Assembly: GCA_903919315.1 (NCBI GenBank)
Contig: CAIXHP010000035.1
Coordinates: 1 to 51,135, forward strand
Length of the DNA: 51,135 bases
From: an uncultured Pseudomonadota bacterium
Lineage (GTDB): Bacteria > Pseudomonadota > Alphaproteobacteria > UBA9219
Reading direction: 5' to 3'
Positions 33,440-37,750 of the stretch are shown piece by piece (position 1 is the stretch's first letter; the number at the start of each line of letters is the position of its first letter). The position numbers and the translations under genes are program-made. The notes under the pieces were generated by a model. That model had not been told where the DNA came from and made no database searches. It saw only the letters and a list, made by a program, of their open reading frames with translations.

Positions 33440-33514
33440 GCTGCCGTAGCTCAGGGGTAGAGCACGTCCTTGGTAAGGACGGGGTCGTAGGTTCAATTCC
33501 TATCGGCAGCACCA
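33440..33514 (+). tRNA. tRNA-Thr (anticodon GGT)
   Basis: A canonical cloverleaf of 75 bases: acceptor GCTGCCG pairing with CGGCAGC, D-arm GCTC/GAGC, anticodon stem CGTCC/GGACG around the loop TTGGTAA, and T-arm GTAGG/CCTAT with loop TTCAATT. The CCA end is encoded (33512-33514). The anticodon GGT reads threonine. AT-rich accessory DNA and an integrase remnant follow, so it may have been an integration site. Confidence 0.96.
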
Positions 33515-33722
33515 GTTTCCCAATAAAATCAGCAAGCTTTCCTGAATGTTCCGATTACCCCATCGGCGCAAATATGCAGAACTTTGCAAGAACATCGCCC
33601 AAAAGTGGGGGAAGAAACAAGATTAGTATTTTCTCCGAATGAGTTGCCGAATAGCTCGTATAAAGTTAGGGTGTAGTTCTCCTTGCGCTCTTTGCTCCCC
33701 TAGCCAATGAAGGCAATCCGTA

Positions 33723-34634
33723 ATGCAAACCAATCTTTTGGACCGTCAGATTTGGAAAAACATTAATGATGCGGCTCAGCAGGTTGAAGGAGCCCTTGAG
33801 ACGGACTTGATGGCCTACATAGGCCCCATACATCCTCAATATCTAAAGGCGTTTAGAAATTTTATTGAGGCAATGGGAACGCCGAAAAGAAACGCCGAGG
33901 CAATTACCATCCTACTTAGGACGCCTGGCGGTATTGTTGAGGCCGCCGAGAAGATGGTTGAAATTATTCGGCATCATTACCTCACAGTGAATTTCGTTGT
34001 GCCGGATTATGCTATGTCTGCGGGGACAATTTTATGTATGTCCGGCAATAAAATTTATATGGATTATTCTTCGTCACTCGGCCCGATTGATCCACAAGTG
34101 CAGGTGGCAGGACAAGGTAATTCAGGGTGGAAATTTGTCCCTGCTCTTGGATATCTAGATATGGTGGAAAAATTGATAAATCGGGCAACAGAAGGAACAC
34201 TCACACAAGCTGAGTTTTTGATCCTACAAAGCCAAGACTTAGCAATGCTGCGCTCTTACGAACAAGCAAGAGACTTATCTGTCAGCCTTCTGAAAAAATG
34301 GCTGGTAGAATATAAGTTTAAAAGCTGGGATAAACACCGCTCGGATGTTTCTAAAAAGGGGCAAGAAGTCACTTCGGAAGAAAAGGAGGAGAGAGCTGCT
34401 GCTATTGCTAAACAATTGGGAGACAACAAGGTCTGGCATTCTCATGCACGAATGATTGGTATATCCACATTAACAAAAGATTTACGACTGGAAGTTGAGG
34501 ATTATTCCGAAAATATTAACCTAAGAAACAAAATTCGAGTGTATAATGACTTATTAACAGATTACGTAGATCGTAGCGGAGAAGGGTTTATCCTTCACAA
34601 CAGAATATTACAAGATGATGGAGCCGCGTCATGA
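33723..34634 (+). CDS. Clp-fold serine protease, SDH (SppA/ClpP-like) family
   Basis: A 303-residue protein resembling the SDH/serine dehydrogenase proteinase family (PF01972), a branch of the Clp/crotonase fold. The features are LLRTPGGIVEAAEKMVEII (about 65-83), the putative nucleophile Ser99 in PDYAMSAGTILCMSG, and YSSSLGPIDPQVQ (116-128). There is no signal peptide or membrane helix, so it should act in the cytoplasm. Substrate unknown. The gene is AT-rich relative to its surroundings, lies 209 bases after tRNA-Thr and overlaps the next small ORF by ATGA, so the two form an operon. This context suggests horizontal origin; a defence role is speculation. Confidence 0.8.
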   Translation: MQTNLLDRQIWKNINDAAQQVEGALETDLMAYIGPIHPQYLKAFRNFIEAMGTPKRNAEAITILLRTPGGIVEAAEKMVEIIRHHYLTVNFVVPDYAMSAGTILCMSGNKIYMDYSSSLGPIDPQVQVAGQGNSGWKFVPALGYLDMVEKLINRATEGTLTQAEFLILQSQDLAMLRSYEQARDLSVSLLKKWLVEYKFKSWDKHRSDVSKKGQEVTSEEKEERAAAIAKQLGDNKVWHSHARMIGISTLTKDLRLEVEDYSENINLRNKIRVYNDLLTDYVDRSGEGFILHNRILQDDGAAS

Positions 34635-34840
34635 CACTGACAACACGCCTTGAGCATGTTTTAAGCCAACGCTTACCTCTTCTTGAGCGGGACGAGACGT
34701 ATGTGTCATACAAAAAATATTATGACGAAATGAAATCTAGCGGGCTTCTAAAAGAAGAAGGGTATACCTTGGCTCCGTTTGGAGAACCTGTTTCTCAACA
34801 TCCTCAAAAAGATAAGGTTGCAGCAAGAACACTCTATTAA
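34631..34840 (+). CDS. 69-residue protein of unknown function
   Basis: A short, charged, probably helical protein (MTLTTRLEHVLSQRLPLLER at the start, Lys/Asp/Tyr-rich middle, FGEPVSQHPQKDK near the end). I recognise no family. Its ATG overlaps the protease stop codon (ATGA), and it shares the AT-rich composition of that gene, so it is likely a partner, adaptor or substrate. No terminator is evident after it. Confidence 0.6.
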   Translation: MTLTTRLEHVLSQRLPLLERDETYVSYKKYYDEMKSSGLLKEEGYTLAPFGEPVSQHPQKDKVAARTLY

Positions 34841-34856
34841 TTGGAGATATTAAGTT

Positions 34857-35072
34857 CTAACCAAGTCTTGGCAACCTCTTCCCCGCCTCCCGTACAACCT
34901 CAATATCCCCGCCTTGATAGCGTAGGGAGCTTTTAACGTCCGTGTGGCCGAGGCGATCCATAATGGTGCGCAGGGAGGCTCCCTGTGCGTAGAGCCTTGT
35001 GCCGACAGTATGGCACGCCATGTGAGGAGTGATGTTCACCCCATGCCGTCGCGCAGGGGGATAAGCCAGTTA
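34857..35072 (-). pseudogene. Tyrosine recombinase (integrase) remnant
   Basis: Only the C-terminal end of a phage-type integrase remains: ARRHGVNITPHMACHT, TRLYAQGASLRTIMDRLGH, SLRYQGGD and a short tail. An in-frame stop lies at 35070-35072 and the N-terminal two thirds are gone. In the HxxR box the arginine is replaced by cysteine (HMAC), while the later GH and the Tyr of SLRYQ survive. A GTG start (35037-35039) could give 60 residues, but this cannot be an active enzyme. With tRNA-Thr at 33440 it frames a small inserted island. Confidence 0.85.
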
Positions 35073-35209
35073 TGGCCCCGCCACTGTGATCCCCGCATTG
35101 TGAGGGGGAAAGCCCCCCTCCACGTTCCCCTTGCGCCGTCAAAGAACCTCGGCGTAGGTTTATGCGGAGCGAAGGTTTTGCGCTCGTGTAGTGAAAGGGC
35201 TGGACGCTT

Positions 35210-36124
35210 ATGAAGATTGAGGGATTTCGGGTTTGGCGTTGGGCGGTGCTGGCGTTGTTGGTGGGGGGCTTTGCGCTGCGGGTCGCGCCTGCTGCGGCTT
35301 ATTCTGCCAGCGAGACGAACCCAGCTGATTTGGGCAACTATGCTTGTGAGCGGGTGGGGGCGGGCAAAGCGCTCGATCTGACCGGTGCCGCCGTCACTTT
35401 TGAGGACGAGTTTTTTCGCCAGAGCATCGCTCCGCCCGAAGGCCATAACTTGTGGTATGCGCCTATCCATGGCGGGTTCGGCGGCGCAAGGTTTTTGCGC
35501 CCCGACGATAAGTTTTCCCCCTTTTCCCAAATCATCGGGCACCTCAACATCCGTATGAGCTACCGTGACGGGAAGTGGTATTCAGGGATCATTCAGACGG
35601 TGAACGCCAAGGGAGTCGGCTTTGCCCAGAAATACGGTTATTTTGAAATGCGCGCGCAGTTTCCGGCGGGCATGGGCTCATGGCCCGCTTTTTGGCTCAA
35701 GACGGTGAACCAGTTCACGAATCCGACCGAAACGCGCGCGGAAATCGATGTGATCGAGGCTTATGGCGGCCGAGATCAATTTGGCCATCATTCGACCGTC
35801 CACCTCTGGCCTGCCGCGCAACGCGGCTCGGCCTCGCTGGCGAAACATTGGTGGAAGGGATGCTATAACAAGATTCCGGGCGGCTTGTTTGACGGGCAAT
35901 TCCATACCTATGGCGGCGAAATTACGCCCAATTACGTCATTCTCTATTTCGATCGCAAGGAAGTCGCGCGTTTTGCGACGTTGCCTGAATTTAAGAAGCC
36001 TTTGTTTGTCCTCGTTGATCTGGCCTATAACGCTCAGTATGAGCCGCGCACCGATCTCACGCCGCTCGATATGCGCATAGACTATGTTCGCGTGTGGCAG
36101 CGTCCTCAATGGAGGAATCTTTAG
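35210..36124 (+). CDS. Glycoside hydrolase family 16 (beta-glucanase/ExoK-like)
   Basis: A 304-residue secreted enzyme. A hydrophobic N-terminal segment (10-30) ending in APAAAYSA acts as signal peptide. The GH16 catalytic motif is ETRAEIDVIEAYGG, with Glu178 as nucleophile, Asp180 and Glu183 as acid/base. Upstream of it lies KYGYFEMRAQFPAGMGSWPAFW, typical of the family. In polysaccharide loci such enzymes (ExoK-type) trim the polymer or set its length. It opens the exopolysaccharide region on the plus strand, 57 bases ahead of the exosortase gene. Substrate is inferred. Confidence 0.88.
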   Translation: MKIEGFRVWRWAVLALLVGGFALRVAPAAAYSASETNPADLGNYACERVGAGKALDLTGAAVTFEDEFFRQSIAPPEGHNLWYAPIHGGFGGARFLRPDDKFSPFSQIIGHLNIRMSYRDGKWYSGIIQTVNAKGVGFAQKYGYFEMRAQFPAGMGSWPAFWLKTVNQFTNPTETRAEIDVIEAYGGRDQFGHHSTVHLWPAAQRGSASLAKHWWKGCYNKIPGGLFDGQFHTYGGEITPNYVILYFDRKEVARFATLPEFKKPLFVLVDLAYNAQYEPRTDLTPLDMRIDYVRVWQRPQWRNL

Positions 36125-36181
36125 GCGAGGCGGCATCGGATTCAGAACTGGAAACGCGAGATTGATAGAAGGCCTGGCTTT

Positions 36182-37750
36182 ATGAATCCAACATTGACGA
36201 TTTCAAAAAAGAACGCCGTGGCTCTTTTTTTGATTGTTCTGCTCGGCTTGGTCTTTGGGTGCGTCTTTTCCGGCGCGGTTGGGACGATCATCCAGTCTTG
36301 GGACAAAGAAGAGTACAGCTATGCGTTTCTTGTCGCGCCCATCGCTCTGCTGCTGATCCTTCACCGCCTCGCGAAAACACCAACCGAACCGCAGCCGTCT
36401 TGGCTTGGCGCGGGGATGGTTGGGGCGGGGCTCGTCGTGCATCTCTTTGGGCACCTGTCCGGCATCACTGTTTTTCCTCAGTACGGTTTTATTCTCGCCT
36501 TCTGGGGTTTGTTCTATGCGCTGTTGGGGCGGAAGGTTTTTGCGAGCCTGTTGGGCGAGTTGGCCTATCTGTTTTTCGCCATCCCGCTTCCGACGACGCT
36601 GTACATCAGTTTGTCGGCCAAGCTTCAGCTGCTTTCCTCCATGCTCGGCACGGATATGCTGCAGCTTCTTGGCTTTGCCGTCTATCGGGAAGGCAACGTC
36701 ATTGATATGGGGCTTTATAAGCTTCAGGTCGTCGAGGCGTGCAGCGGTCTGCGCTATATTTTCCCGTTGCTTGGCTTTAGTTATCTGGTTGCCTATTTTT
36801 ACAAAGACGCTTTTTGGAAACGTGTCGTGGTTTTCATCTCGGCCTTGCCGCTTGCGGTGTTTCTGAATATCGCGCGGATCACATTCATCGGAATCACGGT
36901 CAACTATTGGGGCGTGGGCGCGGCGGAAGGACTCTTGCATGAATTCGAGGGATGGGTCGTCTTTGGGGTTTGCATCATGCTGCTCTTCGCCGAAGTGTAC
37001 GTCCTGCGTTTTGTCGGAAAGACCAAAGGCGAGCTTGACCTTAGCGCGCTTGCCGTCCCGCTCGGCCCTTATTTTTCGAAGCCCGTAAAGATCGGCGGTG
37101 TTTTCGCCGTCATCCTGTGCGTTTTCGGCCTCGTGGGGTTGGGGCAGGCCAGCGGGTATCTTGCGCCCAAAGCCGAAGTTATTCCGGCTCGACAGTCCTT
37201 TGTCGCCTTTCCGTCCGAAATCGGCGGCTGGCGCGCGACGTTTGAGAGCCTCAAGGAGCAGGAAATCCAGCTTTTGCGGCTGTCCGATTATCTCAACGCC
37301 TCGTTTGCGAAGGATGACGGGCAGGCCGTCCATCTTTTCGTCGCGTATTACAATTCGCAGCGCAACAAAAACGACCTGCATTCGCCTGAAATGTGTTTGC
37401 CGGGCAGCGGTTGGCAGGCGCGGTCGACCAAGACGCATCGCATGAAACTCACGCCGGATGGACGAGGCGTCGATGTCGTGCGCACAGTCGTGGAAAAAGG
37501 CTCGACGCGGCAGATCGTCTATTACTGGTTTGAGCAAGCCGGACACAGCGACGCAAGCCGCCTCGGCATCAAGGGGCGAACCATCGTCAATTCGCTATCG
37601 ACAGGCCGCACGGACAGCGCACTCCTGCGCCTTGGAACCGTCCTATCGCCGCAGGAAACGGAAGCGGAGGCGGACAACCGTATCCAATCGTTCTTTGCCG
37701 AGGCGTTTCCGCAGCTTCAGCCGTTCATACCGGACTTCACGCTGGATTAA
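36182..37750 (+). CDS. Exosortase with fused EpsI domain
   Basis: A 522-residue protein joining an eight-helix exosortase to a periplasmic EpsI domain. The proposed catalytic residues are Cys187 in VVEACSGLRYIFPLL, Arg232 in FLNIARITF and His253 in LLHEFEGW. EpsI (about 310-520) contains DLHSPEMCLPGSGWQ. Exosortases cut and transfer PEP-CTERM-type proteins, usually together with exopolysaccharide production; the fusion resembles the A/D types. No PEP-CTERM substrate was found in the window. Next to it on the opposite strand, the sugar-modifying genes begin. Confidence 0.9.
   Translation: MNPTLTISKKNAVALFLIVLLGLVFGCVFSGAVGTIIQSWDKEEYSYAFLVAPIALLLILHRLAKTPTEPQPSWLGAGMVGAGLVVHLFGHLSGITVFPQYGFILAFWGLFYALLGRKVFASLLGELAYLFFAIPLPTTLYISLSAKLQLLSSMLGTDMLQLLGFAVYREGNVIDMGLYKLQVVEACSGLRYIFPLLGFSYLVAYFYKDAFWKRVVVFISALPLAVFLNIARITFIGITVNYWGVGAAEGLLHEFEGWVVFGVCIMLLFAEVYVLRFVGKTKGELDLSALAVPLGPYFSKPVKIGGVFAVILCVFGLVGLGQASGYLAPKAEVIPARQSFVAFPSEIGGWRATFESLKEQEIQLLRLSDYLNASFAKDDGQAVHLFVAYYNSQRNKNDLHSPEMCLPGSGWQARSTKTHRMKLTPDGRGVDVVRTVVEKGSTRQIVYYWFEQAGHSDASRLGIKGRTIVNSLSTGRTDSALLRLGTVLSPQETEAEADNRIQSFFAEAFPQLQPFIPDFTLD

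What the first reader, a model, noticed from the sequence alone, without database searches (positions are those of the whole stretch)
33723..34840. Protease and 69-residue partner as a possible undescribed two-gene system
The SDH-type Clp-fold protease (Ser99, TPGG, SSLGPIDPQ) is cytoplasmic and translationally coupled to a tiny charged protein of unknown family, in an island beside a tRNA. Proteases paired with small proteins in such places have proved to be defence or stress modules in other cases, so this pair is the best candidate for something new in the window.
Basis: inference. Interest (0 to 1): 0.6.

Follow-up and report, generated by a model that had tools for sequence, protein, structure and literature searches.

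The report
Mobile protease with small partner protein
Two overlapping genes, a ClpP-fold protease and a 69-residue partner, travel together across many bacterial phyla in prophages and small genomic islands, in slots that elsewhere hold anti-phage genes, so they are probably an undescribed phage-exclusion module, although no activity has been tested.

Summary
Window 33723-34634 encodes a 303-aa SDH-type ClpP-fold protease, and 34631-34840 a 69-aa protein that overlaps its stop codon (ATGA). The pair is real: 68 of 74 distinct protease loci have a 50-85 aa ORF directly downstream, against 72 of 502 other genes in the same loci. The small genes are under purifying selection and share a weak motif. 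Two contexts point to phage defence. In prophages, about 17 of 31 testable loci lie directly behind a CI-type repressor, and in E. coli between cI and N, the rexAB slot. In the window's own family, five elements at tRNA-Thr share both ends but swap cargo: one carries a type II restriction-modification system, another a cytosine methyltransferase, and the window this pair. PADLOC (2023) has no model for either protein, and the open papers searched do not describe the pair. I propose a phage-exclusion module with the protease as effector and the small protein as its inhibitor, sensor or adaptor. Distribution and context are shown; function and mechanism are inferred.

The parts
33440..33514 (+). 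tRNA-Thr (GGT), integration site of the element
   Evidence: ARAGORN; relatives carry duplicated 3' halves of this tRNA flanking small islands
33515..33613 (.). common left end of the element, shared with elements of other cargo
   Evidence: blastn: window 33440-33613 is 94% identical to L176, 91% to L187 over the stretch; part is shared with L183 and L201
33723..34634 (+). SDH-type ClpP-fold serine protease, 303 aa plus stop
   Evidence: Pfam PF01972, PHROG 11747, AlphaFold2 pLDDT 91.7, ClpP/SppA fold; Ser99, Asp123, Lys198 invariant in 73/73 and His241 in 72/73 relatives
34631..34840 (+). 69-aa partner protein, overlaps the protease stop by 4 nt (ATGA)
   Evidence: conserved downstream ORF in 68/74 protease loci, alignment A2, purifying selection in four close pairs of relatives, cross-detection by profile
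34857..35073 (-). C-terminal remnant of a tyrosine integrase (open frame 34857-35039), common right end of the element
   Evidence: Pfam Phage_integrase 7.1e-08; window 34863-35073 78-86% identical to the integrase ends of L176, L187, L183 and, over a shorter stretch, L201; 85% protein identity over residues 264-329 of the intact 330-aa integrase of G017

Best explanation
A mobile two-gene phage-exclusion (defence) module. The cytosolic ClpP-fold protease is the effector; it has no ATPase gene beside it, so it should act on unfolded, tagged or directly bound substrates. The small protein, made from the same transcript by translational coupling, is predicted to be a helical hairpin with a flexible conserved tail. 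It most likely binds the protease and either holds it inactive until a phage protein removes it, or brings a phage or host target to it. Infection then triggers proteolysis that stops the infecting phage, either by destroying a phage protein or by shutting down the host. Shown here: the two genes, their co-conservation, fold, conserved active-site candidates, mobility and slots. Inferred: binding, inhibition or delivery, trigger, substrate, defence itself.
For: Pairing: 68/74 loci against 72/502 controls, over Bacteroidota, Acidobacteriota, Nitrospinota, Pseudomonadota, Bacillota, an archaeon and others. Protease much more conserved than partner (mean pairwise 50% against 20% in 27 pairs, lower in 351 of 351 comparisons), as expected of a constant effector with a diverging sensor or adaptor. 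Prophage slot: Peptidase_S24 repressors are the upstream neighbour in 15 of 50 tested loci (list), and in E. coli the order is cI - protease - small - N antiterminator. That cI-N slot is a known accessory-gene site that holds rexAB and bstA (PMC7067206); RexAB-type pairs behind a CI-like repressor give phage defence in Pseudomonas putida (PMC12894663). Island slot: the window shares both element ends with four elements in relatives; one of these carries a type II restriction enzyme (PADLOC 6.7e-98) plus C5 methyltransferase, another a C5 methyltransferase. Another island at the same tRNA carries SoFic (PADLOC 3.5e-118). Low GC and patchy occurrence.
Against: No functional data. Neighbours of the chromosomal copies are mostly not defence genes: type I or IIG methyltransferases in only about 3 of 129 neighbour proteins, with no baseline measured. 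Cargo of a shared slot need not share function; two of the five elements carry genes of unknown role. One subfamily member sits among phage head genes (L081). Neither protein has a PADLOC model.
Confidence: 0.55

Rival explanations
1. Toxin-antitoxin or addiction pair: the protease is toxic to the host and the small protein is its dedicated antidote, kept for maintenance of the mobile element rather than for defence.
For: Two overlapping genes with a small fast-evolving partner, residence on prophages, plasmids and islands, persistence in decayed elements such as the window's own, whose integrase is only a remnant.
Against: Possible antidote is the second gene, while most type II pairs have it first (established knowledge). 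The small gene stays intact in L118 although its protease carries an internal TAG, which fits an antidote left behind but also plain decay. Position behind cI is more typical of exclusion genes.
Confidence: 0.17
2. Lysogeny regulator: the protease acts on the neighbouring CI-type repressor or another phage regulator and sets the lysis-lysogeny decision.
For: CI-type repressor directly upstream in about 17 of 31 viral loci and in E. coli prophages. RexA itself biases the lambda switch (PMC11077077, abstract).
Against: The window and most chromosomal loci have no repressor beside the pair. The neighbouring repressors are of several kinds (S24, HTH_3, Phage_CI_repr, HTH_31), which suits an accessory slot better than a specific substrate.
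Confidence: 0.12
3. Phage head-maturation protease or a derivative of one, with the small gene as a structural helper.
For: In L081 the gene lies between a MuF-type gene and the scaffold and major head genes; ClpP-like prohead proteases give weak matches.
Against: Only divergent members (L081, L089, perhaps L085/L086) are near head genes. Most lie at repressors, in islands or in chromosomes without head genes. L081 already has a MuF gene in the maturation-protease PHROG.
Confidence: 0.05
4. Ordinary intracellular peptidase of the host that happens to be followed by a small gene.
For: Belongs to a broad ClpP/SppA fold family with housekeeping members.
Against: Full-length subfamily member in 1 of 59 relatives (the window's genome itself) and 2 of 398 phylum genomes; 17 of 5426 E. 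coli genomes hold a similar gene; low GC and mobile-element context.
Confidence: 0.04

Closest known systems
SDH-type ClpP-fold serine proteinases (Pfam PF01972; NCBIfam NF047768)
   Same: ClpP/SppA core, TPGG, SAGT serine, SLGPIDPQ; RefSeq already uses this name for the E. coli members
   Different: Only residues 59-127 align to PF01972 and the score is far below the NF047768 cut-off; a conserved C-terminal helical region (LLKKWLVEYKF..W, W.SH.R) and a dedicated small downstream gene
Lambda RexAB and RexAB-type exclusion pairs
   Same: Two-gene module in the slot behind the CI repressor, between cI and N (PMC7067206, PMC12894663)
   Different: A ClpP-fold protease and a soluble small protein, not a DNA-binding sensor plus membrane protein; also found far outside prophages
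BstA of Salmonella prophage BTP1
   Same: Accessory gene in the same cI-N slot, cotranscribed with cI (PMC7067206)
   Different: Single gene, unrelated in sequence to this pair as far as the annotations go
ClpP with ClpX/ClpA and adaptor proteins
   Same: Protease fold; small proteins can act as adaptors or inhibitors of ClpP machines (established knowledge)
   Different: No AAA+ gene in the operon; aligned by eye, the ClpP catalytic His position falls in GPID and is not His, so the catalytic base is probably different
Phage ClpP-like prohead proteases
   Same: ClpP-like core (PHROGs 53, 94, 1684)
   Different: Most members are not in head operons

Membership tests
SDH-type ClpP-fold proteinase (PF01972) | Significant match to the Pfam model above its gathering score | tested here: met
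   58.9 bits against 31.3, residues 59-127
NCBIfam NF047768 (SDH family Clp fold serine proteinase, equivalog) | Score above the curated cut-off of 250 bits | tested here: not met
   72.8 bits for the window protein; RefSeq nevertheless uses the name for E. coli members
ClpP/crotonase fold peptidase | Structural match to solved ClpP/SppA | tested here: met
   Foldseek E about 1e-5 to SppA and ClpP; VIA-align Z 13-14 to ClpP over 165-183 residues
ClpP/crotonase fold peptidase | Catalytic nucleophile conserved | tested here: met
   Ser99 invariant in 73 of 73 relatives
ClpP/crotonase fold peptidase | Proteolytic activity and catalytic base identified | not testable with these tools
   Lys198, Asp123 and His241 are conserved candidates; no coordinates could be measured and no assay was possible
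RexAB-type phage exclusion system | Located in the slot behind the CI repressor | tested here: met
   Met for E. coli and many prophage relatives; not for the window copy, which lies at tRNA-Thr
RexAB-type phage exclusion system | RexA-like DNA-binding protein plus RexB-like membrane protein | tested here: not met
   ClpP-fold protease and a soluble 69-aa protein without hydrophobic segment; so not a member, only the same slot
Known anti-phage defence system (PADLOC-DB 2.0.0) | Match to a model of a defence protein | tested here: not met
   No match for either protein at E up to 1
Phage defence module (functional) | Reduces phage plating when expressed | not testable with these tools
   no experiment possible
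Phage prohead protease | Gene lies beside portal/scaffold/major head genes | tested here: not met
   Not met for the window or most relatives; met for L081 only in part

The most novel reading that the evidence does not exclude
A widespread, horizontally spread anti-phage system that works by proteolysis without an ATPase: a ClpP-fold protease of the SDH type gated or aimed by a tiny, fast-evolving partner that senses infection.
Probability: 0.42. Interest if true: 0.82.

Novelty: new variant of a known kind. Interest (0 to 1): 0.6.

Why it matters
If it is a defence system, it adds a ClpP-fold protease with a dedicated small gate or adaptor to the known effectors, and it occurs in E. coli prophages, so it can be tested at once in laboratory strains. 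Even without defence, it shows that proteins filed as unknown or as generic 'SDH family' proteases belong to a two-gene unit whose second gene has no family model. It also exposes a tRNA-Thr element in this bacterial family that swaps one- or two-gene cargoes, several of them defence genes, and which could be mined for more.

Tried and rejected
Family searches of the small protein gave nothing. A profile of the small proteins hit designed pentatricopeptide-repeat proteins in the PDB, but through an 18-residue helix-turn (EM...G) repeated in the targets; I treat this as a chance resemblance. A search for att repeats of the tRNA 3' end in the window found none, so the window's right boundary rests on the shared integrase end, not on a direct repeat. 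Enrichment of defence genes around chromosomal copies was looked for and is weak. The top 'decoys' in the profile cross-check turned out to be partner genes from near-duplicate or interrupted loci, plus one ORF from inside a protease gene. Reading L002 through its stop as glycine gave a fused model with the partner as two helices (pLDDT about 75-86) and a tail below 50; no contact map was available, so it says nothing firm about binding. Papers on SDH proteases, ClpP-like proteases with phage defence, and rex-slot genes gave no description of this pair. Searching the isolated-phage collection found only distant relatives. Synteny of the MMPL gene in relatives did not show an empty site.

Full report
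WHAT IS THERE. The protease (33723-34634, +) is 303 aa; its Ser99 sits in AMSAGT after TPGG, and SSLGPIDPQ follows. Pfam places residues 59-127 in SDH_protease (PF01972, 5.5e-16). NCBIfam's SDH model is matched far below its cut-off, while PHROG 11747, a phage family of unknown function, matches almost the whole chain (1.6e-59). The predicted structure is confident (pLDDT 91.7) and is a ClpP/SppA fold with a helical C-terminal region. The small gene (34631-34840, +) starts inside the protease stop codon (TCATGA) behind a GGAG; its 69-aa product has no family.

IS THE PAIR REAL. A scan of one genome per species gave 30 relatives (39-60% identity) from Bacteroidota, Acidobacteriota, Nitrospinota, Myxococcota, Pseudomonadota, Bacillota, a methanogen and others; an alignment-based scan of viral contigs gave 80 more places, about 60 of them from the same subfamily. 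Profile scores show a clean gap: subfamily members at or above about 230 bits, other SDH-like proteins below 165. In 68 of 74 distinct subfamily loci an ATG ORF of 50-85 aa starts between -25 and +60 nt of the protease stop; the same test on 502 other genes in the same loci succeeds 72 times (odds ratio 68, Fisher p = 2e-41). Because loci are related, the p-value overstates, but the contrast is plain. Close pairs of small genes from relatives show purifying selection. The small proteins share a weak pattern, a helix followed by K.G[LIV].K..Y.La/P, and in one large group also DTIGR. A profile built from 13 of them picks up others of the set, and the high-scoring 'decoys' proved to be partner genes of interrupted or near-duplicate loci. 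Over 27 pairs the protease averages 50% identity and the partner 20%, the partner being lower in all 351 comparisons. Alignment of such short sequences is rough, so the partner value is approximate.

IT IS NOT HOUSEKEEPING. Among 59 relatives only the window's own genome has a full-length member; among 398 genomes of the phylum two do, again counting the window's own. In E. coli 17 of 5426 genomes hold a similar gene. The tree does not follow phyla closely: the window's nearest rows are from Duganella and a Bacteroidota bin, not from alphaproteobacterial copies (many branches are weak, so this is consistent with transfer rather than proof). GC of the pair is 42% against 57.7% in the window.

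WHERE IT SITS, 1: PROPHAGES. In E. coli the order is cI (LexA-family repressor) - protease - small gene - N antiterminator or other early genes. In the viral contigs the gene directly upstream on the same strand is a CI-type repressor in about 17 of 31 loci where a same-strand neighbour of 60 aa or more ends within 250 nt (list, judged by eye from HTH motifs and backed by hmmscan: Peptidase_S24 in 15 and HTH_3 in 13 of 50 neighbours). The region between cI and N in lambdoid prophages is a known site for accessory genes expressed in the lysogen, such as rexAB and bstA (PMC7067206). A RexAB-type pair behind a CI-like repressor protects Pseudomonas putida from phages (PMC12894663).

WHERE IT SITS, 2: THE tRNA-Thr ELEMENT. 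The window's pair lies between tRNA-Thr(GGT) and a C-terminal remnant of a tyrosine integrase. In the same bacterial family this tRNA is a hot spot: 3' halves of it are duplicated at distances of about 0.2 to 7 kb. Four elements in relatives share DNA with both ends of the window's element: the left end (window 33440-33613, identical to 85-94% in the shared parts) and the integrase end (34863-35073, 78-86%). Between these ends lie different cargoes: in G020 a type II restriction enzyme (PADLOC 6.7e-98) and a C5 methyltransferase; in G017 a C5 methyltransferase, a 302-aa ORF without a match, and an intact 330-aa integrase; in G012 an ORF with a weak DUF5677 match; in G009 a 218-aa and a 163-aa ORF of unknown role; in the window the protease pair. 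Other islands between tRNA halves carry SoFic (PADLOC 3.5e-118), an HNH nuclease with a different SDH-type protease, and an LprI-like protein. The window's integrase is truncated (60-aa open frame), so this copy is probably fixed in place; the pair itself is intact.

OTHER CONTEXTS. On Rhizobium plasmids the pair follows a multiubiquitin/E2, ThiF/JAB and DUF6527 operon. Around chromosomal copies, type I and IIG methyltransferases and DUF4268 (PDC-S11) occur in a few loci; without a baseline I do not count this as enrichment.

HOW IT PROBABLY WORKS. Ser99, Asp123 and Lys198 are invariant in 73 of 73 relatives and His241 in 72, so the protein is very likely an active hydrolase; which residue is the general base is not settled here, and by-eye alignment puts no His at the ClpP position. 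No ATPase gene is linked. The partner is predicted as a helical hairpin with a flexible tail (fused model of L002; confidence moderate, contacts not available). Translational overlap, a constant protease and a variable partner suggest that the partner gates or aims the protease: inhibitor released on infection, or adaptor for a phage or host target. The slots in lysogens and in a restriction-modification cargo site make phage exclusion the best-supported role. The steps 'binds', 'gates', 'trigger' and 'target' are all inferred.

COMPARISON AND NOVELTY. It is a member of the broad SDH-type ClpP-fold proteases, but does not reach the NCBI equivalog cut-off. It is not a RexAB member, only in the same slot. 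PADLOC 2.0.0 (2023) has no model for either protein and the open papers searched do not describe the pair; subscription papers and newer defence libraries were not available, so prior description cannot be excluded. I rate it a new variant of a known kind.

LIMITS. All functional claims are from context. Counts of loci include related sequences. Metagenome bins can hold misassigned contigs. The count of 17 of 31 repressor neighbours rests partly on recognition by eye.

Noticed in passing
relatives of the window's genome: L172 (G017:C14), L173 (G011:C200), L174 (G004:C13), L175 (G017:C86), L176 (G017:C28): tRNA-Thr(GGT) is an integration hot spot with duplicated tRNA 3' halves around small islands of changing cargo (RM genes, SoFic, HNH, LprI-like), i.e. 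a possible source of new defence genes.
   Followed up: partly
L172:2211-3302 (+): A different, divergent SDH-type protease (364 aa) sits with an HNH nuclease between two tRNA-Thr halves at the same hot spot; no small partner follows.
   Followed up: partly
L081:5333-6365: A subfamily protease with a small ORF lies between a MuF-type gene and the scaffold and major head genes of a phage.
   Followed up: partly
L030:6341-6793; L080 about 1 kb downstream of the protease: ORFs that look like Panacea/DUF4065 (SocA-like) proteins lie downstream of the protease; in L030 it takes the place of the usual small gene. Judged by eye, not tested.
   Followed up: no
upstream of the protease in L009, L017, L048, L082, L092: A short basic ORF (GKNPAAVALGR.GG..GG.ARA type, or PADVI..A) overlaps the start of the protease gene in several loci; a possible third component or a common mobile-element gene.
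   Followed up: no
L118 (G258:C26); L031; L150: Protease genes interrupted by a stop codon, a frameshift or a split annotation; in L118 and L031 the small gene behind is still open.
   Followed up: partly
window 35210-37750 (+): A GH16 family protein (Pfam hit) is followed by what looks by eye like an exosortase gene with an EpsI-type C-terminal part; an exopolysaccharide locus borders the element.
   Followed up: no
L149:7012-10819, L150:5032-8817: Rhizobium plasmids carry the pair directly behind a multiubiquitin-E2 / ThiF-JAB / DUF6527 operon, a ubiquitin-like conjugation system.
   Followed up: partly
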